A stretch of DNA of 26,344 nucleotides from a virus: positions 1 to 26,344 of IMG/VR virus record IMGVR_UViG_3300005098_000041; one strand, 5' to 3'. The position numbers and the translations under genes were made by a program. The notes beneath the pieces are model-generated. The model saw only the letters and a list, made by a program, of their open reading frames with translations. It was not told the origin of the DNA and did no database searches. Positions 968 through 26,344 of this stretch are shown here, one piece after another (positions within the stretch are counted from its first letter, which is position 1; the number at the start of each line of letters is the position of its first letter).

Positions 968-1713
968 GGCTGACCAAAAAGAGGGCTGACGCCACGCTCT
1001 ACGCGCTGGCGTGCCATCTGGCAGTAGTCAGCGTTGATGTCGATGCCGATGAAGCGGCGAGAGAGGCGGGCGGCGGCGACGCAAGTAGTGCCGCTGCCGC
1101 AGAAAGGGTCGAGGATGATGTCGTTGGGCGCAGTCCACCAGCGCACGAGGTCTGATAGCACGGAGAGCGGCTTCTGTGTCGGGTGCCTTGTGCGTTCTTT
1201 CCCTGCAACTACTGCCCGGGCGCCCCAGTCCTTGTGCTGTCCTTCCGTGTAATTGTAGGTGTTCTCTCCATCGGTGCGCTGCCAGATGCCGATGAGTTCC
1301 CAGCCGCTCATCCAGTTGACCTTCCGGGCTTGCGGCACGGGGTTGGTCTTGCAGTCGGCGTAGTAGTTGCGCAAGCGATAGCCGAGGGGATCGAGCATGC
1401 GCCGCAGCAGGTCAATGCGCTTCTTGTTGAAGTAGGAGATGAAACTGCCACCAGGCTTGAGTAGATGGTGGCATTGGCTTACCCAGTGATGGGTGAATTC
1501 CGCGTACTCGGCGTCATCTTTGAAGATGTCCCAGTCGCCGAAGTTGAGGACGATGTCCTTGGCTTCGAACTTCGTGCCGCGCCGCTTGATCACCGTGTTG
1601 CTGGATATGGCGTAGGGCGGGTCGGTGATGATGGCGTCAACGCAGGCGTCTGGGAAGGTGGGTAGGATTTCAAGGCAATCGCCGCAGAGAATTCGGTTGA
1701 TGGGCAAGTTCAT
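964..1713 (-). CDS. DNA N6-adenine (or N4-cytosine) methyltransferase
   Basis: This 249-residue protein transfers a methyl group from S-adenosylmethionine to an exocyclic amino group in DNA. The catalytic motif IV DPPY is at residues 31-34, in TDPPYAI. The SAM-binding motif I (FCGSG, preceded by ILDP) lies near residues 200-208, followed by GIDI. Motif IV before motif I is the beta-class order, and DPPY rather than SPPY favours adenine. The target-recognition region lies between. Its ATG overlaps the HNH gene stop by four bases (ATGA), so translation is probably coupled, and no good Shine-Dalgarno is seen. Phages use such orphan enzymes to evade host restriction or to mark packaged DNA. The recognition site cannot be read from sequence. 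Length and motifs look intact. Confidence 0.93.
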   Translation of the reverse strand: MNLPINRILCGDCLEILPTFPDACVDAIITDPPYAISSNTVIKRRGTKFEAKDIVLNFGDWDIFKDDAEYAEFTHHWVSQCHHLLKPGGSFISYFNKKRIDLLRRMLDPLGYRLRNYYADCKTNPVPQARKVNWMSGWELIGIWQRTDGENTYNYTEGQHKDWGARAVVAGKERTRHPTQKPLSVLSDLVRWWTAPNDIILDPFCGSGTTCVAAARLSRRFIGIDINADYCQMARQRVERGVSPLFGQP

Positions 1714-2168
1714 CGGGCCGTCCAGTGAAACAGTGGCTCGATTTCCGCTAGTGAAACGGGCGCGAGGGGCGGCGGGTCGGGTCTCCTGGGCTGACGGGCT
1801 AGACGGTTATCGACTGTCGTTTTCAGCACATGGCAGTCATGGCAGAGTAGCTGAAGGTTCGCAAGTGTCCAGTAGCGCAGCTCCCGGGGCGCCGATTGGA
1901 GCGGCACGATGTGGTCAATCTCGAACGGCTGTACGCAGCGGTTCCATTCTCCTCCATCCTTTCCGCAGATAGCGCAGCGATGCCCGTCGCGTTCTACCAG
2001 CGCTTCGTATTGAGCGTGCTGGAAGGTAATCAGACGGTATTCGTCCAGACAGGCTTCATGCCATAGGCGTCGCCGTGGCTCATTAACGGGCTTACCGCAC
2101 CAACGGCAGTAGCCTTTGCGCGGCGGATCGGTGAAGCTCTTAGGGAGCGGTGGATCGCGGTGGTTCAT
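1710..2168 (-). CDS. HNH endonuclease
   Basis: A 152-residue protein with an HNH nuclease core: CAIC at residues 65-68, the metal and catalytic segment EIDHIVPL at 83-90 (H86), an Asn in LANLQLLC (104), and the closing CHDCH at 109-113. The two Cys pairs probably bind a structural zinc. A further CRWC pair at 21-24 with C40 forms an extra N-terminal zinc-binding segment. AGGAGA sits seven bases before the ATG on the leftward strand. It is translated just ahead of the methyltransferase, suggesting a two-gene nuclease-methylase unit. It could be a restriction-like partner, a homing-type nuclease, or a packaging-associated HNH protein. The last is less favoured because the terminase is more than 3 kb away. 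Confidence 0.88.
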   Translation of the reverse strand: MNHRDPPLPKSFTDPPRKGYCRWCGKPVNEPRRRLWHEACLDEYRLITFQHAQYEALVERDGHRCAICGKDGGEWNRCVQPFEIDHIVPLQSAPRELRYWTLANLQLLCHDCHVLKTTVDNRLARQPRRPDPPPLAPVSLAEIEPLFHWTAR

Positions 2169-2787: not shown

Positions 2788-3771
2788 TCACGCATTCCGC
2801 TCCCAGAGGACGGATTTGAAGTAGCCGAAATTGTCGAGGATGCGGGCTTCGTCGGGTGCCTGCGTCCAGTAGTTTGCTGGGAGGATGCGGTTCGCTTGCA
2901 GGCGATCCCAGTCGCGGCGGTTGACCCAGACGAAGGTGGTGCGGCAGGAATAGTGAAAGGGAGGAGCGAAGCGACCGTTGACGATGTCTTCGCGGCTCAC
3001 ATAGCGACCGTAGAGAGGGCGGCAGATGTCGCTGGTGCGTTCGTCGAGCACTACCATGAGCTGACCGCCGGGAAGGAAGTCCGCCAGCGAGGGGTCGAGC
3101 CCATATTCGATTCTGCCGAAGTTGTAAGCGGTCATCACATTCGTGCGGTAGACGATCTCCTTATGCAGCTCCGGACTGAGGCGGCCGGGCACCCCGAACT
3201 GTAGGTCTTTCACCTGCTCCAGGAAGCCCTCGTATGTGAGTTCGCCCGCGAGTACACGCAAGAGCGCAGGTTTGACGATGCTGCGGATGGCTTGCTCGGC
3301 GAGATGGGCTACGGTGAGCGCATTGAGGGACTCCTGCCCGGAGAGGGCGTTGAACTGGTCACGGTTGACCGGCACCTTCGTAGCGAGGTAGGCGTAGGCG
3401 TCATCGTCATTGTCCCAAGTCAGCTCGTCGTCGGGGGGCTCGGAGTCAAAACGGATGAAGCTCGGCGGGAACGGAAGCCTGCGACGGTATTCGGACTCGC
3501 GCAGCTTCGCGCGCTGGTAGTCGGCTTCGCCGGCGAGTCCGTGAACATCGCAACTGAGGCGAAGCGAGTGAATGAACTTGCGGAACCCCGGCGTCTGGAA
3601 GCTGAGCGCATCGAGGGAGTGGAAGGCGGTGCCCGGGTCGAGGCGAGCGAGCTGTTCTGCCAGTGAGGCGTAGAGGCTGGCGTAGGGGACGGCGCCTTTA
3701 GCGAAGACTTCCGCCTCCAGCTTCGGAGCAATGGAGGCGACTTCGGGGGCGGTTTCGGGAATCGTCTGCAT
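2788..3771 (-). CDS. Phage head morphogenesis protein, Mu gpF / SPP1 gp7 type
   Basis: A 327-residue minor head protein of the MuF family, which sits at the portal vertex and is needed for head assembly or DNA delivery. The family's C-terminal signature is clear: the RTNVMTAYNFGR helix (209-220), then DERTSDICRPLYGR (243-256) and PPFHYSCRTTF (270-280), with conserved Asp, Cys and His positions. The N-terminal 200 residues are helical and less conserved. The leftward GAGGGG lies about nine bases before the ATG. It follows the portal gene, the usual order portal then MuF, but with an unusual 171-base spacer between them. There is no C-terminal toxin extension of the kind found in some MuF proteins. 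Confidence 0.9.
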   Translation of the reverse strand: MQTIPETAPEVASIAPKLEAEVFAKGAVPYASLYASLAEQLARLDPGTAFHSLDALSFQTPGFRKFIHSLRLSCDVHGLAGEADYQRAKLRESEYRRRLPFPPSFIRFDSEPPDDELTWDNDDDAYAYLATKVPVNRDQFNALSGQESLNALTVAHLAEQAIRSIVKPALLRVLAGELTYEGFLEQVKDLQFGVPGRLSPELHKEIVYRTNVMTAYNFGRIEYGLDPSLADFLPGGQLMVVLDERTSDICRPLYGRYVSREDIVNGRFAPPFHYSCRTTFVWVNRRDWDRLQANRILPANYWTQAPDEARILDNFGYFKSVLWERNA

Positions 3772-5271: not shown

Positions 5272-6600
5272 TTAGAACACTCCTGCGACTTGGTATGCGT
5301 GGCGGCGTTCGCCGGTGGTTCGAACGCCCGTCGGGATGGCCGTGCCTGTGCTGCCGACGCCCCAGTAGGCGAGCAGCCGTGCGCTAACGGTGTCGTCGTG
5401 CTTGCCGCTGGGCGCAGTGCCGCTGAAAAGATTGGTGCGCGGATTCAGCATCAGCTCGAAGCTCTCCATCTCTTCGTTGGCGACGGGCTCGTCAATGAGC
5501 CTGATGCTGTGGTTGGCGACGAGCACGCGGAAGTGCTTGATGAGCATGGAGTTGAGCCGGGCACTCGCGACCACGTCGTCTATGTTGAGTTGGTACCTGG
5601 TGCGCAGCTGCTCGATCTCCGGGTCGCCGGGGCCGTTGGACTCCATGAGGACCGTGCCCGGGTACTGCTTGGCGATGTTGGCGAGGCGAGCCTCCTGGGT
5701 GGCGAAGTCGGGGTCCCGAAAGCGGTCAATGTAGACCTCGTCGAGCGTCTTTCGGTCAACTACCGAGATAACGCAGAAGTCTTTCTTGTGACCGAGGTCG
5801 AAGCCGATTGAGTAGGTGTGACCCGGTTCGGGGGGGAGCTGCTTTGAGCCGAGGCATTCCCGCCATCCGGGAAAGGCTTCCAGCATATCGCCGATGTACT
5901 CGGCGTATATCTCCTGCTGCACGAACTCTTCGGGCATATTAGAGACGCCGACGAGCTCGTCTATCTGCTCCTTAGTCAGGAGGGCGTTGTCGTAGGAGGT
6001 TCGATGGAAAATAGCCCAAGGACTGTCGGGGCTGCCCTGCTGGACTAGCTTGCCACGGTCGTCAAAGGACGCCCCGTGCGCCAGGGCGTGCATCTCAAGA
6101 CCGTGAAGCCAGTTGCGTCCTCGCGGGGTGCTGGTAAAGAGAGCGCGACTTCTCGGATTGTCGAGCAGCGTGGGAGCTAGGCATTCCTGCCAAGCGGTGG
6201 GACGCGCGCGAGCGCATTCGTCGAAGATCAGCAGATCGACGCCCTCCCCTACGAGCTGATCCTCGTTTTCAGCGGTTAGGAAATGGAGCTCGGACTGGTT
6301 CTGGAAGATGTAGAAGGGGGGGTCGTGGCGCTCTTTAGCGATGACTTGATTCCAGAGCCTGCGGTCCTTCAGAAACTTGCGGAACTTCTTGCGTCCAATG
6401 CGGCTGAGCCGATAGGACGGCGACACCCACCAGATGAGGCAGCCCGCGTGCTCATGGGCGTACTTCACGGCGATGCGGCAGGAGAACTCTGTCTTGCCGA
6501 AGCGGCGACCGCAACGGAGGATGATGAAACGCTTGCCCTGCTTGTACGCGGCGTAGACGGGAAGTTGACCCTGATGGAAGTCGAGAGAGACCGTTTGCAT
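5272..6600 (-). CDS. terL: Terminase large subunit (packaging ATPase and nuclease)
   Basis: A 442-residue packaging motor that threads DNA into the prohead and cuts it. The ATPase half has Walker A GRRFGKTE (31-38), an IWWVSPSYR strand (56-63), Walker B LLIFDECA (123-130) with catalytic Glu, and coupling motif FTSTPRG (155-161). The RNase-H-like nuclease half has GFDLGHKKD (D268), VLMESNG (E320) and GKHDDTVSA (D402/D403), the expected acidic triad. All key residues are present, so it should be active. It starts two bases after the small-subunit stop and abuts the portal start. Mu gp28-like by context. Confidence 0.96.
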   Translation of the reverse strand: MQTVSLDFHQGQLPVYAAYKQGKRFIILRCGRRFGKTEFSCRIAVKYAHEHAGCLIWWVSPSYRLSRIGRKKFRKFLKDRRLWNQVIAKERHDPPFYIFQNQSELHFLTAENEDQLVGEGVDLLIFDECARARPTAWQECLAPTLLDNPRSRALFTSTPRGRNWLHGLEMHALAHGASFDDRGKLVQQGSPDSPWAIFHRTSYDNALLTKEQIDELVGVSNMPEEFVQQEIYAEYIGDMLEAFPGWRECLGSKQLPPEPGHTYSIGFDLGHKKDFCVISVVDRKTLDEVYIDRFRDPDFATQEARLANIAKQYPGTVLMESNGPGDPEIEQLRTRYQLNIDDVVASARLNSMLIKHFRVLVANHSIRLIDEPVANEEMESFELMLNPRTNLFSGTAPSGKHDDTVSARLLAYWGVGSTGTAIPTGVRTTGERRHAYQVAGVF

Positions 6601-6602
6601 GG

Positions 6603-7058
6603 CTAGCTCTCAGCCTCGGGGACTGTGATCTGCCCTGGATGCACGGGAATGACCTGCGGAGCACCCGCTTCATCGGTGTCTTGGTCGAATTGCAGGCTCT
6701 TCTGGTTACTTGGCTCAAGCTGCGCCTGCAACGCTTTGGATATCTTCTCATGCTTGTCGATGGCTACGCCGAGCACGGTCGGGAGGATGTTTGCCGGTAT
6801 CTTGTCGATGTCGAGCTTCTCGATGATCCGCTCGGCAGCCTTCTGGATGATCTGGTCGAGTTGGTCGAGGACGCCGACGTCGATGTGCCATTGGAGCTCT
6901 TCCATCCAGTGCGAGTAACGCTGCGCCCAGCGGCGCAGGTTCGACTCGGCGATGCCGGTTTCCTCTGCGGTGCGCTTGTAGTTGCCATCCCGCAACCGTA
7001 GGTGCAGGAGTGCCTTGCGAATTTGCTCCTCCGTGTATTCCGAGCCGGTCCTGCTCAT
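6603..7058 (-). CDS. terS: Terminase small subunit candidate
   Basis: From the ATG at 7058 this is 151 residues. The open frame extends much further upstream, but that region has low-complexity composition and would run across the dyad element. The ATG at 7058 has TGAGGT about six bases ahead. The N-terminus is a helix-turn-helix, YTEEQIRKAL then NYKRTAEETGIAESNLRRW (residues 8-41), as in small terminases that recognise the packaging site. A long helical middle (50-115) suits oligomerisation, and an acidic and Pro-rich C-terminus could contact the large subunit. It lies directly upstream of terL with a two-base gap. Identification rests on this fold pattern and position; a helix-turn-helix regulator is the alternative. 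Confidence 0.82.
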   Translation of the reverse strand: MSRTGSEYTEEQIRKALLHLRLRDGNYKRTAEETGIAESNLRRWAQRYSHWMEELQWHIDVGVLDQLDQIIQKAAERIIEKLDIDKIPANILPTVLGVAIDKHEKISKALQAQLEPSNQKSLQFDQDTDEAGAPQVIPVHPGQITVPEAES

Positions 7059-7087
7059 CAACGACCTCAGTGGAGGCGGGCAGCCTC

Positions 7088-7181
7088 CTACTAGTAGGTG
7101 CGTGGGACGGGAGATTCGGGCTGTTTTGGCTGATTTCAGCCAAAACGGACGGCAGGCGGCGGTTCGTGCACCTACTAGTAG
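7088..7181. promoter_or_regulatory. 94-bp nested symmetric dyad in divergent intergenic region
   Basis: Left arm CTACTAGTAGGTGC (7088-7101) is repeated inverted at 7168-7181. Between them GTTTTGGCTGA (7123-7133) and TCAGCCAAAAC (7136-7146) form a perfect 11-bp dyad around TT. The outer and inner dyads share the same axis, 7134.5, with 21-base intervals on each side that are not conserved. CTACTAGTAG is itself palindromic, and its two copies are centred 84 bp apart, eight helical turns at 10.5 bp per turn. The element sits 30 bases upstream of the small-terminase start and about 90 before the protease start. It could be the terminase binding and cutting site or a looped operator controlling both head operons. 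No clear sigma70 promoter is visible nearby. Confidence 0.75.
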
Positions 7182-7272
7182 ATGCGAGCGCGGAGCCGCC
7201 AAGTGGAACTTGTCAGTTTCATTGCCATCTCGGCTGTGCGCTCGTTCAGCTTGCGGCAGGAGAGATTCGGCA

Positions 7273-8697
7273 ATGGCTGAAAACTGGCAGGTGGTTCCGT
7301 TCAAAAAGGCGAAGCCCGTGGAGGGCGGTGGCTGGGACCAGAGCGCGGCACGGAGACACGCGGCTGAGAAGGCTTCGTCCGACGGCTCCGGCGAGAAAGA
7401 CACTATCAACTGGACCGAGTATCGCCAGTTCTTCGGGCTCTACGACGCAGCCGACCCTGAGAATATTGGAAGCTACAAGTATCCGCTGAAGGACGTGCGG
7501 GACGGGGTGATTGTGCTCGTGTTCGAGGGTCTGTCGGCGGCGATGGCTCGACTCGGAAGCGCACCCGCGCAAGTTCGGAGGCGGCTTTACAACCTGCTAA
7601 AGCGCTACTACTCGCTGTTCGAGGGGAAGGAAGTGCCCGAATACAAGTTCGCACGGCTGAGCGGCGTGGAGATACTCCGACCGGGCAGGTGGAACGGCTT
7701 CGAGGTCTCGCGGGAAGACTGCCAGCGTCTCGTGGACGGCTACGACCCGAGCTACCTGCTGGCGCCAGTCCTGCTGGGGCATAAGATGGAGTACGGCGAT
7801 GGAGACGAAAAGCTTTCGGAAGGATGGGTTGAGCGCCTGTATTGGAAGGATGGAGCGGTCGCGGCTGACCTGGCTGATGTGCCGGACTCCACGGCAGAGC
7901 TGGTGCAGCAAGGAAGGCTGCATTACCCGTCGGTCTACGTGAGTCCGGACTTCAACGAACTGTACCACCTGGCGCTTCTGGGCGGATCCAATCCGGCAGT
8001 GGAAGGGCTGGCGACTTTGCGGGATGCGGTCGTTCAGTTCTCGGGCGATAAAGACGTGAGAGTAATCACCATGGATTCCAACAAGGAGGGCAAGACACCA
8101 ATGCCAGACATGGACGAAAAGGAAAAACTGACCCTCTTCCAGCGATTCGGTAGGCTGCTGGGCTTCACCGTGCAGCCGGCGGCTGACGGCGGCGTGAGCG
8201 TCTCTTCCGACGAAGAGGCGCTCGAGTTCAAGCGCCGTGCTGAGGCTGCGGAGACAAGGCTCAAGGAGCTGGAAGGGCGAGTCGCGGAACAGGAGAGGCA
8301 GGCGCGATTCGCTAGGGCGGAAGCCGAGGTAGACAGGCTGGTGGCCGAAGGCAGGCTGACTCCTGCGGTGAAGGACGCGGGGCTTACGGAAGTGGTGGCG
8401 TTCCTTTCCCGCGGCGAGAAGCTCAAGTTCAAGAAGGGAGACGAGGAGGTCGAAGGCACCTATGGCGACAGGTTGCTGTTCGCGCTTTCGCAGCTTCCCC
8501 AAAACCGGCTGAAGAAGCTGGCGGCGGCGCCCGACGCCGGCGAGGGATCGCTCCTTGGGCGCAGCGATGCCATCGACCAGGAGATGGAAAAGCAGCGTCT
8601 GGAGTTTTCCAGGAAGCACGGACGCGAGCCGGACCAGAAGGAAGAGCTCCAGCTCTACGAGATGGCTGTTAACACGGTTGACGGGAGGAAAAGCTAA
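7273..8697 (+). CDS. Prohead protease fused to scaffold, Mu gpI type
   Basis: A 474-residue protein. The start ATG at 7273 follows AGGAGA with good spacing; the open frame continues upstream through the dyad region but is not credible there. Residues 45-125 (NWTEYRQFFGLYD, YKYPLKDVRDG) are an N-terminal domain often joined to phage proteases. Residues 130-250 form the I-like protease: VEILRPGRWNG, APVLLGHKMEYGDG (H170), GWVERLYW, LHYPSVYVSPDF (S220) and YHLALLGGSNPAVEGL. H170 and S220 are my candidates for the catalytic pair. Residues 277-474 are acidic, helical and coiled-coil (VSSDEEALEFKRRAEAAET), as in scaffolds. It cleaves scaffold and itself during head maturation. The stop overlaps the next start (TAATG). 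Confidence 0.85.
   Translation: MAENWQVVPFKKAKPVEGGGWDQSAARRHAAEKASSDGSGEKDTINWTEYRQFFGLYDAADPENIGSYKYPLKDVRDGVIVLVFEGLSAAMARLGSAPAQVRRRLYNLLKRYYSLFEGKEVPEYKFARLSGVEILRPGRWNGFEVSREDCQRLVDGYDPSYLLAPVLLGHKMEYGDGDEKLSEGWVERLYWKDGAVAADLADVPDSTAELVQQGRLHYPSVYVSPDFNELYHLALLGGSNPAVEGLATLRDAVVQFSGDKDVRVITMDSNKEGKTPMPDMDEKEKLTLFQRFGRLLGFTVQPAADGGVSVSSDEEALEFKRRAEAAETRLKELEGRVAEQERQARFARAEAEVDRLVAEGRLTPAVKDAGLTEVVAFLSRGEKLKFKKGDEEVEGTYGDRLLFALSQLPQNRLKKLAAAPDAGEGSLLGRSDAIDQEMEKQRLEFSRKHGREPDQKEELQLYEMAVNTVDGRKS
8083..8103 (+). promoter_or_regulatory. Internal ribosome binding site for the scaffold
   Basis: AAGGAGG at 8083-8089 lies 11 bases before an in-frame ATG at 8101. This is a near-perfect Shine-Dalgarno in the middle of a coding region, placed exactly at the protease-scaffold junction. 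It is the arrangement known from Mu I/Z and lambda C/Nu3, where the scaffold is made by internal initiation. Confidence 0.6.
8101..8697 (+). CDS. Predicted scaffold protein from internal start
   Basis: In-frame 198-residue product sharing the C-terminus of the protease gene, starting MPDMDEKEKLTLFQRFG. It is charged and alpha-helical with a heptad-rich stretch (EALEFKRRAEAAETRLKE and following) and a C-terminal helix. This suits a scaffold that fills the prohead and is then digested by the protease. The evidence is the strong internal Shine-Dalgarno, the domain boundary at this point, and the precedent of phages Mu and lambda. Not proven without protein data. Confidence 0.55.
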   Translation: MPDMDEKEKLTLFQRFGRLLGFTVQPAADGGVSVSSDEEALEFKRRAEAAETRLKELEGRVAEQERQARFARAEAEVDRLVAEGRLTPAVKDAGLTEVVAFLSRGEKLKFKKGDEEVEGTYGDRLLFALSQLPQNRLKKLAAAPDAGEGSLLGRSDAIDQEMEKQRLEFSRKHGREPDQKEELQLYEMAVNTVDGRKS

Positions 8698-9368
8698 TGG
8701 CGACTGAAAGAGCTTACGGCTACAAGGCGGCGGCTGGTCTCGTGAAGTATCGCGGGGTCGTGCTCGATGGCAACGGCAAGCTTGCGTATCCGACCACCGA
8801 CGGCGACAAGATATTCGGGCTTACGACCGACGATGTGACGTCGGGAAAGGTCGGCAATGCGCAGCGGTCGGGGCAGGCGTACGCGGAGGTCTCGGAAGCC
8901 CTAAGCGCGGGGGATCTTCTGCGGGCACTCAAGACAACGGGGAAGCTGGAGAAGGCGGAAGCCACGGCCACCCTTAACTCGACGAACGCAAATGCGGACC
9001 TTACCTTCACGGCACAGCACAAGTTCCAGGGGGGCGACGGCGACGAAATCTCGGTAGAGCTGAAGGACCCTAGCGGCAACAACAAGTCGCTTTCTATCAC
9101 CGTCAACGGGAAGCAGATCACGGTCAGCCTGGCTACGGAGGGCTCGGGGGCGATCACATCCACGGCGGCGCAGATCAAGACGGCGATCGATGGGGATGCG
9201 GACGCATCTGATCTCGTGAGCGTCGCGGTGGAGGGAGACGGCAGCGGCGTGGTTGACGCGATCGCGCAGACCTTCCTGTCCGGAGGAAACGGCGCGTTCT
9301 GCACGGCGCTGGAGGCGGCTACCGCCGACGGCGACATCATCAGAGTTGACATAGGAGGCGTGGCCTAA
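8697..9368 (+). CDS. Head decoration protein with inserted beta module
   Basis: A 223-residue small capsid protein. Residues 1-87 (GVVLDGNGKLAYPTTDGDKIFGLTT, SGQAYAEVSEALSAGDLL) and 198-223 (GAFCTALEAATADGDIIRVDI) together match the pattern of trimeric decoration proteins of the DUF2190 type, which stabilise the expanded head. Between them, about residues 88-197, lies an extra domain with ITVSLATEGSGAITSTAAQI, EGDGSGVV and a closing LSGG. A close relative of this domain occurs in the tail gene at 18930. GGGAGG lies eight bases before the ATG; start and stop overlap the neighbouring genes as TAATG. The insert probably projects from the head surface and may bind polysaccharide, which is an inference. 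Confidence 0.8.
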   Translation: MATERAYGYKAAAGLVKYRGVVLDGNGKLAYPTTDGDKIFGLTTDDVTSGKVGNAQRSGQAYAEVSEALSAGDLLRALKTTGKLEKAEATATLNSTNANADLTFTAQHKFQGGDGDEISVELKDPSGNNKSLSITVNGKQITVSLATEGSGAITSTAAQIKTAIDGDADASDLVSVAVEGDGSGVVDAIAQTFLSGGNGAFCTALEAATADGDIIRVDIGGVA

Positions 9369-10372
9369 TGATTGAAGGAACCGTACATTACGACAAGACG
9401 CTCACGGACCTGTCTATTAGGTTCCTGGAGAGCGATTTCGAAGGGCAGTTGCTTGGGCCGAAGGTGGCGCCGTTGGTGACGGTGGACGAGCAGAGTGGTC
9501 GCTATCCCGTGTTCGGGATGGAGGAATTCAAGTACGCCGACGATGACGACCTGCTTTCCGATGAGGGCGAGGCGCGGATTTATGCGCCGTCGATGAGCGC
9601 AGACAGCTATAACTGCGACCTTCATGCCGAGCAGATAATCGTGTCTGAGTACAAAAGGGCGCGTTCGGACCGCGCCTTCGAGGTCGATGCAGCCCGCAGG
9701 CTTCCGGAGGTCATCCGGCGGATGCGCTGGAGACACGAGCTGAAGGTCGCGAGCCTGCTCACGACGGCGGGGAATTACGCCACCAATAACAAGCTGGACT
9801 TGGACTCGCTGGCGAACCGCAGATGGGATGAGAGCGCCCCGACCCCGATTGAGGACATCGAGAACGCGATGGACGTGATGCAGCTTCAGTGTGGCGTCTT
9901 TCCCGATACGCTCATCTTCCCGCTGGCAGCGTGGCGGAAGTGGAAGAACCTTTCGGATGTGCGCGACGCTATCAAGGGAGACCGCGGGGGCGCGATCGTG
10001 CGGCAGGATGTGGCGGACCACTTCGGATTCCGCAATGTCTTCATCGGCGCGGGGCTGCGTGACACGGCGAAGAAGGGACAGTCACGCAGCATGGCGCGGC
10101 TCTGGGGCACCAAGAATGTGGTGCTACTGTATGCGGGTAGCGGCGAATCGAACCTCCAGACGCCAGCGACGGCCAAGACGTTCGTGTTCAATCCGCCTGA
10201 GATCCCGACGGCGCAACTGGGAATGGTTGTCGGCATCGAGCGCATCCCTAAGCGTGGCGGTGTACCTGGCTCCATGTCTGCGGAAGCCGACTGGTTCTAC
10301 ACGGTCAAAGCGACTGGCGTCGCGGGCGGCAAGATTATCGCTGGGTACCTAATCTACAACGTCATCGCGTAG
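9368..10372 (+). CDS. Major capsid protein
   Basis: A 334-residue protein following protease, scaffold and decoration genes, the standard place for the capsid protein. Features resembling HK97-fold capsids are the N-terminal SIRFLESDFEGQLLGPKVAPLVTV, an extended E-loop region with YPVFGMEEFKYADDDDLL, a long helix with ARRLPEVIRRMRWRHELKVASLL (spine helix), the LIFPLAAWRKWKNLSDVRDAIKG segment and a C-terminal P-domain strand set ending AGGKIIAGYLIYNVI. Its sequence is closest in style to Mu-related siphoviral capsids. AGGAGG sits nine bases upstream of the ATG, the strongest Shine-Dalgarno in the operon, as expected for the most abundant protein. No N-terminal delta domain is present because the scaffold is separate. 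Confidence 0.9.
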   Translation: MIEGTVHYDKTLTDLSIRFLESDFEGQLLGPKVAPLVTVDEQSGRYPVFGMEEFKYADDDDLLSDEGEARIYAPSMSADSYNCDLHAEQIIVSEYKRARSDRAFEVDAARRLPEVIRRMRWRHELKVASLLTTAGNYATNNKLDLDSLANRRWDESAPTPIEDIENAMDVMQLQCGVFPDTLIFPLAAWRKWKNLSDVRDAIKGDRGGAIVRQDVADHFGFRNVFIGAGLRDTAKKGQSRSMARLWGTKNVVLLYAGSGESNLQTPATAKTFVFNPPEIPTAQLGMVVGIERIPKRGGVPGSMSAEADWFYTVKATGVAGGKIIAGYLIYNVIA

Positions 10373-18141: not shown

Positions 18142-18936
18142 GTGAGCGCATTCGGCAACATCAGCGCACGCGGCTATCTCAACTTCAATCGCTCGCTCCC
18201 CATGGTGCGGCTGCCGGAGCTCGATGTGCGCTTGGAGATCCGCGCGGTGAGGCATACTGGACGGGGGAGCTATGTTGAGCGGTCTTATCGCGTGTATCCC
18301 CATGCTAGGGGGAAAACGGCTCAGGGCGTATGCGCCGAATGCGGCGGTATCTGGCAACGTCCCAGGGCTCACTTAAAGGGCGAAGGGCCCTACTGCTGCT
18401 CTCTAGTTTGTCATAACCGGTGGTTGGGACATCGGCAGCGGGGTTCCCGCAATCCTCATCCGAAGGCGAGGACCGACGCTTGGTTCGCCTGTGACTTTTG
18501 CTACAAGCTTATCCGCCTGCCACGGTCGGTGGCCGCTAGGTCGTCGCTTCACTTCTGTTCTAAGAAATGCAAGGATGAATACCAGCGCAGGGACGCACGG
18601 GGCGACCAGGCGTCAGCTTGGCGCGGGGGCGAAGTCACTCGCGGTAATGGATATGTCGGTGTCTGCGTGGAGCACGGCGGCGCCGGTAAGCGCACCAGAT
18701 ATCGGATGAAGCACAGGATAGTTATCGAGGCGGCCACCGGCAGACCATTCCCCTCAGGATTCGTAACGCATCACAGGAACGGTGATCCATCGGATAATCG
18801 TTTGGAAAACCTCGCGGTGCTCCGTCAGGGCGACCACGCGCGCCTGCATCGCTGGTCCATTAATGACCCGCGACGCAAGAGCCTGCGGATGCTAATAGTC
18901 CGAAAGGGCAAACTCGTGGAGGTGCCTGCGTGCTGA
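18142..18936 (+). CDS. HNH endonuclease with N-terminal zinc-finger pairs
   Basis: A 264-residue protein with a GTG start five bases after AGGTGG. Residues 64-150 have two treble-clef-like Cys sets (C64/C67 with C86/C90, and C117/C120 with C139/C143, in CAECGG, CDFCYK and FCSKKCKDEY), probably for DNA recognition. The nuclease core is at 170-235: RMKHRIVIEAATG, VTHHRNGDPSDNRLENL and GDHARLH, with H191, H210/H211, N219 and H232 as metal or catalytic candidates. This is the homing-nuclease style found as invaders of phage genomes. The first 55 residues carry no Cys and read like part of another protein, raising the chance that it inserted into a tail gene. The stop overlaps the next gene by seven bases. 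Confidence 0.87.
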   Translation: MSAFGNISARGYLNFNRSLPMVRLPELDVRLEIRAVRHTGRGSYVERSYRVYPHARGKTAQGVCAECGGIWQRPRAHLKGEGPYCCSLVCHNRWLGHRQRGSRNPHPKARTDAWFACDFCYKLIRLPRSVAARSSLHFCSKKCKDEYQRRDARGDQASAWRGGEVTRGNGYVGVCVEHGGAGKRTRYRMKHRIVIEAATGRPFPSGFVTHHRNGDPSDNRLENLAVLRQGDHARLHRWSINDPRRKSLRMLIVRKGKLVEVPAC

Positions 18937-19859
18937 GGATTCACGACGAATCTCTCGATCTGCATTTCACGCTTCAGGGCTCGACGGTCGAGGAGGCTAT
19001 CCCCACCAAGAATCAGCGGATAATAACGCGGCTGGACGGACTGCGAAGGCTCATCGCGCTCAGCAAGCCGGAGTACGTAGATGCGCTGACGCTCTATATG
19101 CCGATAACGGAGCTTGACGAAACCGGCGTACTGGGGGGCAAGACTTACTACGTGGCGAACTACCTCTGCTGGTGCTTCCAGGGCAATCGCATCGTGCGGG
19201 TCTTCCAGGCGAGCGAGGACTGCGGCAGCCTCCGCGTGTTCAAATGCTACCTGAAGGGCGTGGCGAGGGAGGTAGCTCAGTTCCTGGACTTCTCGAACGC
19301 GCAGACGGGACCTCAGTCGCCTTTGAGTGCGCTTGATGGTCCTCGGGTACCGGTCTCGCGCCCGCTCCCCCAGGAAGTGGGCTGGGACTTGCATGTGCAG
19401 GAGGATGGCGTGTGGGTGGCTGGGTATGCGACCGCGCTGGCGGGCACCGACAACGACCTGAAATTCAGTGCCATAGGGACCGATGTCGAGCACGAGCTGA
19501 CGGTGAACTACCAGGGACGCTTCCCGCTTGTGGACATCTCTATCGCTTATATCGACCCGTTGGCGAGCAATCAACCGCTGACGGTGGCGGTGAAAACGAA
19601 CGATGATGACAACACGCTGCTACGGACAGAAGCTTACATAGAGGTGAGCCTGGCGACGGACGGCGACGGCAATATTACCAGCACGGCGAACGAGATCAAG
19701 GCTGCGCTGGAAGCGGACAGCGGGGTCGCCCAGCTGATAACGGTGGAGATTGCCGAAGGCGACGGAAGCGGCGTCGTGAGTGCGATGGCGAAGACCTGGA
19801 TTACGGGGTGGAGCGAACGTGCGAATGCGAACACCAGCTTCTGGGACCGGGGGTACTGA
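18930..19859 (+). CDS. Tail-associated protein with decoration-type beta module
   Basis: A 309-residue protein from a GTG with GGAGG eight bases ahead, overlapping the HNH stop. Residues 1-130 (RIHDESLDLHFTLQGSTVEEAI, YYVANYLCWCFQGNRIVRVF) match nothing I know. Residues 165-295 form a module very like the insert in the head decoration protein: NDLKFSA, then IEVSLATDGDGNITSTANEIKAAL, and EGDGSGVVSAMAKTWITGW. Between tape measure and hub genes, it should belong to the tail tip. A distal-tail role is possible from position only. It may also be the downstream part of a gene split by the HNH invasion. Confidence 0.7.
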   Translation: MLRIHDESLDLHFTLQGSTVEEAIPTKNQRIITRLDGLRRLIALSKPEYVDALTLYMPITELDETGVLGGKTYYVANYLCWCFQGNRIVRVFQASEDCGSLRVFKCYLKGVAREVAQFLDFSNAQTGPQSPLSALDGPRVPVSRPLPQEVGWDLHVQEDGVWVAGYATALAGTDNDLKFSAIGTDVEHELTVNYQGRFPLVDISIAYIDPLASNQPLTVAVKTNDDDNTLLRTEAYIEVSLATDGDGNITSTANEIKAALEADSGVAQLITVEIAEGDGSGVVSAMAKTWITGWSERANANTSFWDRGY

Positions 19860-24976: not shown

Positions 24977-25234
24977 ATGGTAAGTTATCTGAAGCGGATG
25001 CTGGGATTCGGCACCGACACCAATGCTCTGGAGTCGAAGGGATTCTTGGTACTGGCGGGTTCAGCCCTGTATGCTGTGTACGTCTGGTACACGGGCAGGA
25101 CACTGGAGGTTGACCCAACGGAACTCGCCGAGCATGTACAGAAGATTCTCATACAGGGCGCGGCGTGGGCTGGCGTGCTGCGTTCTATCAGCGCCTTTGT
25201 GAAGCCGTTTCTGAGGAAGCGCTGGGCGGGGTGA
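24977..25234 (+). CDS. Holin candidate
   Basis: An 85-residue protein. The ATG at 24977 is chosen because AAGGAGG ends about six bases before it; the in-frame ATG at 24962 lies upstream of that ribosome site. One clear membrane segment (22-39, GFLVLAGSALYAVYVWYTG) is followed by a second weaker one (about 55-76, VQKILIQGAAWAGVLRSISAFV) and a strongly basic end (KPFLRKRWAG), as in small holins. It should form the lysis pore in the cytoplasmic membrane. Its last 47 bases overlap the convergent recombinase gene. Confidence 0.65.
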   Translation: MVSYLKRMLGFGTDTNALESKGFLVLAGSALYAVYVWYTGRTLEVDPTELAEHVQKILIQGAAWAGVLRSISAFVKPFLRKRWAG

Positions 25235-26344
25235 GCGGCACTTCCTGAAGCAGCAGCCGCGCCAGCGCGATCACCGCCTCTGGCATCCCATAAAGGCTCT
25301 CCGTGAGTTCGCTGGAATCCCCCCCTCTCCGTGCTGTAATCACGGAAGACGGCGGGGTTGGGGGTTTCACTGAAAGCACCAGGTGTATGGATGCTCGGTC
25401 CTTGCGTGAGCGGCGGGTGACGGTTGCTCGCACGATGAGCACCTTCAGGAGCGCCTTCTTGGTGGTGAGGGGGGCGCTCTGCCACCAGGACTTGAGCGCC
25501 GACGCTAGGGCGTCGAAGTCGGCGAGGTGCTCGTAGCCGGGTTCGCGGGCGGAAACATGTCCGGAGGCTAGGCGGCGGCGGAGGGAGCGGAGTTCAGCTT
25601 CGCGCTTGACTCTCAGCTCTTCTATCATCTCGGGCTTTAGGACCTGCGCGACCTCCGGGGACTGCAAGTGTTTAAGCTCAGCCTCCGCTTTCTTGACCTC
25701 TGTCTCGATGGCGTGTCGCGCGCGCTTGGCTTCGTCGGAATGCTCAGAGAGAATATGGGGAAGCTCGTTGGTGAAAAACGAGCGAAGGAAGTCGCCGGTC
25801 AGGATTTCCTCCTCAACGAAGGCGTTGACGGTGGAGTCGACTTGGTCGGCGGGTACCTCTACATTGCCGCAAGGCTCTCTCGGCTTGCGGTGGCGGCTCA
25901 TGCAGCGGTAGCCTGCCCGGATCCCCCTGCCGCTGCCGGTCACGGTCATGCGGCTGCCGCAGACGCCGCAGTAGAGGATGCCGGTAAGGAGGCGTGTTCG
26001 GCTGATGGGCACGGTGCCCTCGCTGAGGATCCTCTGCGCTTCGAAGAACGTCGCCTCGTCAACCGTCGGTTCGCAGTAGTTGTCGATGATCTTCCAGTAC
26101 TTCCGGTCGCGCATCTTCCTGCCAGCCGGATTGGTGCGTGAGTTCTTCGGCAGATACCGATTGTAGACGAGCTTGCCGATGAACTTGTAATCACGGAGGC
26201 GATAAAAGAGAGTGGACGCCGAAAGCCTCTTGCCGCTGGCGGTGGTGATCCCACGCTGGTAGAGCCAGTCGGCGAGTGCGCTTAGGCTGCGCGAGTTCAC
26301 GAAGTACTGGAACATCTGCTGGTGGAGATGGCGGGTAGTGGGGT
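25188..26344 (-). CDS. Large serine recombinase (integrase), 5' end outside window
   Basis: The frame is open to the right edge, so the gene is cut there and the N-terminal catalytic domain with the nucleophilic Ser is not in view. What is visible is the recombinase domain (SLSALADWLYQRGITTASGKRL, DYKFIGKLVYNRYL), then the zinc ribbon (LTGILYCGVCGSRMTVTG, YRCMSRHRK, EPCGN), a coiled-coil region (HAIETEVKKAEAELKHLQ) and a C-terminal tail. This is the layout of large serine integrases that join phage attP to attB without high homology. It points left and converges on the lysis genes. No attachment site is recognisable in the window. The first visible Met (26315) is internal. Confidence 0.9.
   Translation of the reverse strand, partial: PTTRHLHQQMFQYFVNSRSLSALADWLYQRGITTASGKRLSASTLFYRLRDYKFIGKLVYNRYLPKNSRTNPAGRKMRDRKYWKIIDNYCEPTVDEATFFEAQRILSEGTVPISRTRLLTGILYCGVCGSRMTVTGSGRGIRAGYRCMSRHRKPREPCGNVEVPADQVDSTVNAFVEEEILTGDFLRSFFTNELPHILSEHSDEAKRARHAIETEVKKAEAELKHLQSPEVAQVLKPEMIEELRVKREAELRSLRRRLASGHVSAREPGYEHLADFDALASALKSWWQSAPLTTKKALLKVLIVRATVTRRSRKDRASIHLVLSVKPPTPPSSVITARRGGDSSELTESLYGMPEAVIALARLLLQEVPLTPPSASSETASQRR

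What the first reader, a model, noticed from the sequence alone, without database searches (positions are those of the whole stretch)
7088..7181. Perfectly co-axial nested dyad beside the small terminase gene
Inverted copies of CTACTAGTAGGTGC flank a perfect GTTTTGGCTGA dyad. Both pairs share the axis 7134.5, while the 21-base intervals between them are unrelated. Spacing is thus conserved without sequence conservation. The self-palindromic CTACTAGTAG cores are 84 bp apart, eight helical turns. This suggests a multi-subunit protein complex: a terminase packaging site, or a looped repressor controlling both divergent head operons.
Basis: partly seen in the sequence, partly recalled or inferred. 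Interest (0 to 1): 0.78.

Follow-up and report, generated by a model that had tools for sequence, protein, structure and literature searches.

The report
Mirror-image switch between divergent head operons
Between two sets of virus-assembly genes that run in opposite directions lies a mirror-symmetric control sequence, most likely one regulator site that switches on both sets at once; related viruses keep this mirror layout although its letters have almost entirely changed.

Summary
Arms 7088-7101/7168-7181 (14/14) and 7123-7133/7136-7146 (11/11) share axis 7134.5; 3000 shuffles of the gap gave nothing like it. The element fills a 214-bp divergent gap: TerS-TerL-portal run left, protease-scaffold-capsid run right. 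Seven diverged phages have the same divergent head-gene layout. Six have a significant central dyad in that gap (other divergent gaps: 2 of 32; Fisher p 1.5e-5 with the window counted). L089 and L045 also have a nested outer pair. In L043, L044, L062 and L103, -10-like boxes lie at mirrored distances (base 30-32) from the dyad axis (0/5000 shuffles); three of these four contigs encode a Mor/C-like activator. Where terS lies two genes further off, the dyad stays at the strand switch, which argues against a packaging site. Phage P2 is the precedent: one annotated activator site centred -56/-55 of both divergent late promoters pP and pO. Best reading: a divergent late-promoter pair sharing one central regulator dyad, the outer arms being mirrored promoter elements. 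The window's own regulator, start sites and binding are untested.

The parts
7059..7272 (.). Divergent intergenic control region between the two head operons
   Evidence: ORFs 6603-7058 (-) and 7273-8697 (+); the terS start MSRTG is conserved in L042 and, as MTRTG, in L089
7123..7146 (.). Central dyad GTTTTGGCTGA-TT-TCAGCCAAAAC, proposed binding site of a dimeric regulator shared by both promoters
   Evidence: 11/11 complementary, 0 of 200 shuffles; the only copy in the window even at 3 mismatches
7088..7101 (-). Left outer arm, reading GCACCTACTAGTAG towards terS: proposed promoter element of the terminase-portal operon
   Evidence: 14/14 inverted match to the right arm; GCACCTACT shared with the terS-side arm of L089
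7168..7181 (+). Right outer arm GCACCTACTAGTAG: proposed promoter element of the protease-capsid operon
   Evidence: 14/14 inverted match to the left arm
7166..7188 (+). Protease-side conserved stretch GTGCACCTACTAGTAGATGCGAG
   Evidence: Aligns to GTGCAGCTACTTATAGAGTGCGAG in L089 and ACTAGGTAGATGCGAG in L042
6603..7058 (-). TerS-like HTH protein, first gene of the leftward operon
   Evidence: Weak HTH matches; relatives in L042 and L089 at the same place; role inferred from position before terL
5272..6600 (-). Terminase large subunit
   Evidence: phrog_2 E 1e-34, PF03237
3943..5271 (-). Mu-type portal protein
   Evidence: PF06074 E 1e-84
7273..8697 (+). Head maturation protease, first gene of the rightward operon
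   Evidence: phrog_976 E 6e-28
8697..9368 (+). Scaffold-like protein
   Evidence: phrog_8757 and phrog_673
9368..10372 (+). Major head protein
   Evidence: phrog_1005 E 1e-42

Best explanation
The element is the control region of two divergent late (head) operons. A dimeric phage regulator, most likely an activator, binds the central dyad and contacts RNA polymerase at two promoters that point away from it; the identical outer arms are mirrored promoter elements, one per direction. One binding event at equal distance from both promoters would express terminase/portal and protease/scaffold/capsid together. Shown: the mirror symmetry, its place at the strand switch, and its persistence with different letters in relatives, four of which have -10-like boxes mirrored about the dyad. 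Inferred: that the window's arms are promoter elements, that the bound protein activates, and which protein it is.
For: Exact nested dyad in a divergent head-gene gap. Seven relatives with the same divergent order; six have a significant central dyad, 7 of 8 gaps with the window against 2 of 32 control gaps. Nested outer pairs also in L089 and L045. Mirrored -10-like boxes at base 30-32 in L043, L044, L062, L103: 62 matches at zero offset against 39.1 +/- 4.8, 0 of 5000 shuffles. Mor/C-family genes in the contigs of L103 and L044, and below the cut-off in L043; the L044 protein matches Mor, PDB 1rr7; Mor binds a dyad centred at -43.5 (PMC4287176). Arms conserved between window and L089 while the centres are not. 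P2 has one annotated activator site centred -56/-55 of pP and pO.
Against: The window's arms are poor sigma-70 -10 matches and no promoter was called in the gap. In L089 the terS-side arm ends only 8 bp before the ATG, which would leave almost no leader. L042 lacks a significant dyad. Arms are offset from the central dyad by 10 and 13 bp in L089 and L045. No Mor/C or Ogr gene was identified in the window, L042 or L089 records. The mirrored boxes were first noticed by eye, and L043, L044 and L062 are related to each other.
Confidence: 0.66

Rival explanations
1. Repressor operator: a multimeric or looping prophage repressor binds the outer pair (84 bp, eight helical turns) and the centre, silencing both head operons in the lysogen.
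For: The outer sites are near-palindromes by themselves in the window and 84 bp apart. The window encodes a serine recombinase and L089 a CI/S24-like repressor, so a temperate life cycle is plausible.
Against: The self-palindrome and the 84-bp spacing are not conserved in L089 or L045. Mirrored -10-like boxes and Mor/C-like genes in relatives point to activation. The dyad has one copy in each record examined.
Confidence: 0.17
2. Packaging (pac or cos) site recognised by the small terminase encoded next to it.
For: It lies 30 to 170 bp upstream of the terS-like start; TerS proteins often bind near their own gene (general knowledge).
Against: In L043, L044, L103 and L045 the dyad stays at the strand switch although the terS-like gene is two genes further on. 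Mirrored promoter boxes flank it there. Contigs run through it without a break, which does not favour a cos end (inference).
Confidence: 0.07
3. RNA-level element: a long hairpin in a transcript.
For: 7080-7190 folds as RNA at -55.7 kcal/mol, z -5.2.
Against: Any perfect DNA dyad folds as RNA. It lies upstream of both operons, has no terminator T-run and no Rfam match. L043, L044 and L062 keep only a short central dyad flanked by -10-like boxes.
Confidence: 0.05

Closest known systems
Phage P2 divergent late promoters pP/pO with one shared activator (Ogr) site, and the same layout in P2-like phage Smp131
   Same: Terminase-portal operon leftward, scaffold-capsid operon rightward, one regulator site midway: P2 site 3057-3087, start sites 3016 (-) and 3127 (+), centred -56/-55. 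In Smp131 PP' and PO' are the same 18 bp read both ways (PMC3931495). The geometry matches the window if its arms are -10 elements (dyad about -51).
   Different: In P2 the flanks are not mirrored in sequence; the window has identical 14-bp arms and a perfect 24-bp centre. No Ogr family match. The window's head genes are of Mu-like families, and terS is first in the leftward operon.
Phage Mu Mor/C-activated middle and late promoters
   Same: Dimeric activator on a dyad just upstream of or overlapping -35, centred at -43.5 for Mor (PMC4287176; PMC4461284). Relatives L103, L044 and, weakly, L043 encode Mor/C-like proteins and have the dyad at about -42 to -44 of both mirrored boxes.
   Different: Mu head genes are co-linear, so each Mu site serves one promoter; here one site lies between two mirrored promoters. 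No Mor/C gene in the window fragment, and the window's arms lie about 9 bp further out.

Membership tests
P2-type shared divergent late promoter (Ogr-dependent) | Terminase-portal and scaffold-capsid operons diverge from one gap | tested here: met
   P2 compared
P2-type shared divergent late promoter (Ogr-dependent) | Single regulator dyad midway between the two promoters | tested here: inconclusive
   A dyad is midway between mirrored arms; that the arms are promoters is not shown
P2-type shared divergent late promoter (Ogr-dependent) | TGT-N12-ACA site | tested here: inconclusive
   Absent from all gaps, but the exact pattern also failed on P2's own gap
P2-type shared divergent late promoter (Ogr-dependent) | Ogr/Delta zinc-finger activator gene (PF04606) | tested here: not met
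   No match in the window or seven related records; most of these records are fragments
Mu Mor/C-activated promoter | Mor/C-family activator gene (PF08765) | tested here: not met
   None in the window or L042 record; over the cut-off in the L103 and L044 contigs, below it in L043. The window is a fragment, so absence is weak evidence
Mu Mor/C-activated promoter | Dyad centred near -43.5 with a -10 hexamer and no -35 | tested here: inconclusive
   Fits L043, L044, L062 and L103 (boxes at base 30-32); in the window the candidate box lies at base 39
Phage pac/cos packaging site | Location tied to the small-terminase gene | tested here: not met
   In relatives the dyad stays at the strand switch, two genes away from terS
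Phage pac/cos packaging site | Virion DNA ends or packaging starts map to the site | not testable with these tools
   No reads or virion DNA available
Intrinsic terminator | Hairpin followed by a T-run at an operon end | tested here: not met
   None found; the element lies upstream of both operons

The most novel reading that the evidence does not exclude
Divergent phage head modules, apparently in hosts of more than one phylum, are under selection for a mirror-symmetric promoter: one regulator dyad between two copies of the promoter element. The geometry outlasts almost complete turnover of the letters and even a change of activator family, and the window's lineage uses an undescribed activator and promoter element.
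Probability: 0.33. Interest if true: 0.62.

Novelty: new variant of a known kind. Interest (0 to 1): 0.46.

Why it matters
It suggests how a phage can keep terminase/portal and capsid/scaffold in step when they lie in opposite operons: one regulator site equidistant from both promoters. The comparison turns a puzzling dyad into a testable rule (find the strand switch between head operons, then look for a dyad with mirrored boxes) that could locate late promoters and regulator sites in uncultured phages where neither can be recognised by sequence alone.

Tried and rejected
IMG/VR scan for CTACTAGTAG-N50-80-CTACTAGTAG: 26 loci, ten with the same 94-bp span, but these were low-complexity repeats or copies of one unrelated AT-rich family. 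Relatives sought with single proteins (TerS, TerL, major head protein): none; only portal motifs worked. Genome contigs gave nothing, so the host is unknown. No DNA match in GenBank phages. A Mu C consensus recalled from memory (TTAT-N6-ATAA) is present at the L103 dyad centre but was not found upstream of Mu lys or I, so it is not used as evidence. The exact pattern TGT-N12-ACA failed on P2 itself. Sigma-70 region 4: no convincing hit. The weak PF08765 hit in L089's contig (E 0.0016, one stop inside) lies among tail genes and was not accepted. L042: a weak dyad with ACTAG at bases 44 and 45 on its two sides is suggestive only. Hairpin telomere (N15-like) not pursued: the central TT is not self-complementary and no protelomerase was seen.

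Full report
What was checked. The two inverted pairs are exactly as described and share axis 7134.5. In 3000 dinucleotide shuffles of the 214-bp gap no inverted run of 14 arose and no axis carried two runs of 8 or more. The window is a whole 26,344-base linear virus record, probably a fragment.

Surroundings. The gap 7059-7272 separates two divergent operons. Leftward: TerS-like HTH protein, TerL, Mu-type portal, MuF-like head protein, HNH, methyltransferase. Rightward: head protease, scaffold, major head protein, adaptor, neck and tail genes. AT skew is mostly negative left of the gap and mostly positive right of it, as expected if transcription diverges there. No sigma-70-like promoter, terminator or Rfam match was found in it.

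Relatives. No relative was found with TerS, TerL, capsid or DNA queries in the contig collections. Searching with conserved portal segments found L042 (portal 58%, TerL 47%), L089 (portal 51%), and the more distant L043, L044, L062, L045 and L103, all with protease running left and terminase-portal running right in the locus orientation. Many other portal relatives, and Mu itself, are co-linear.

The gap in relatives. A central dyad is significant in L089, L043, L044, L062, L103 and L045 (0 to 5 of 200 shuffles) but not in L042. In 32 other divergent gaps from the fetched loci only two reach that level (Fisher p 1.5e-5 for 7 of 8 against 2 of 32). Dyad sequences differ between lineages; L043, L044 and L062 share a TTCA core. 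L089 and L045 also carry an outer inverted pair: ATAAGTAGGTGCAGTTTG / CAAAGTGCAGCTACTTAT (axis 59.5; best inner dyad 64.5, another inner register exactly 59.5) and AAAATCTATGTAA / TTACATAGATTTT (axis 144.5; inner 151).

Mirrored promoters. Reading outward from the dyad axis, L043 has TAAAAT and TAGAAT at base 30 on its two sides, L044 TATGCT and TACTCT at 31, L062 TAAGCT and TAAGAT at 30, and L103 TATATTTG and TATCTTTG at 32, the last resembling the Bacteroidota -7 element TAnnTTTG (general knowledge). The left and right outward strands of these four match at 62 positions at zero offset; shuffles give 39.1 +/- 4.8, maximum 57 in 5000, and other offsets reach at most 48. If these are -10 boxes, the dyad is centred near -42 to -44 of both promoters. 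Mor/C-family genes lie in the contigs of L103 and L044, and below the cut-off in L043; the L044 protein matches Mor (1rr7). Mu Mor binds a dyad centred at -43.5 (PMC4287176), and the C site lies upstream of -35 at the Mu late promoters (PMC4461284).

Back to the window. The outward unit (T)GCA[CG]CTACT is shared on both sides between the window and L089, with a protease-side extension TAGA(G)TGCGAG also found in L042, while the central dyads are unrelated. The self-palindrome CTACTAGTAG and the 84-bp spacing are not conserved. I read the arms as mirrored promoter elements (TACTAG at base 39, dyad about -51) and the centre as the regulator site. The promoter identity of these arms is inference: they are poor -10 matches, and no regulator gene was identified in the window lineage.

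Known precedent. P2's record annotates one activator site (3057-3087) for both pO and pP, with start sites 3127 (+) and 3016 (-): centred -55 and -56, between the same two functional operons. In the P2-like phage Smp131 the PP' and PO' sites are the same 18 bp read in both directions (PMC3931495). So the principle is known; its occurrence with Mu-type head modules, with mirrored flanks and with different activators is the new part.

Packaging. In L043, L044, L103 and L045 two small genes separate the gap from the terS-like gene, yet the dyad stays at the strand switch. This argues against a terminase site.

Limits. There are few relatives, three of them related to each other; the records are metagenomic and without hosts; the mirrored boxes were first noticed by eye and then tested; there are no binding, start-site or expression data.

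Noticed in passing
window 25188-26315 (-): Large serine recombinase (PF07508, PF13408) cut off by the contig end, its catalytic N-terminus missing; suggests a temperate phage.
   Followed up: no
window 7273-7570 (+): The first ~97 residues of the head protease are a separate domain shared (43-48%) with Thermus phage Riverbug and Methanocaldococcus fervens tailed virus 1, a bacterial and an archaeal virus, and with many co-linear relatives.
   Followed up: partly
window 18930-19859 and 8697-9368 (+): A domain of the scaffold-like protein (phrog_8757) recurs in a second protein encoded among the tail genes.
   Followed up: no
L089, gap 5706-6051 (central part): The central dyad is built of 10-bp iterons (CCGACTGAAA CCGACAGAAA CCGACATTTT, then TGTCGGGTTC TGTCGG), giving two possible dyad registers 5 bp apart.
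   Followed up: partly
window 1710-2168 (-) and 18142-18936 (+): Two HNH endonuclease genes, one in each operon.
   Followed up: no
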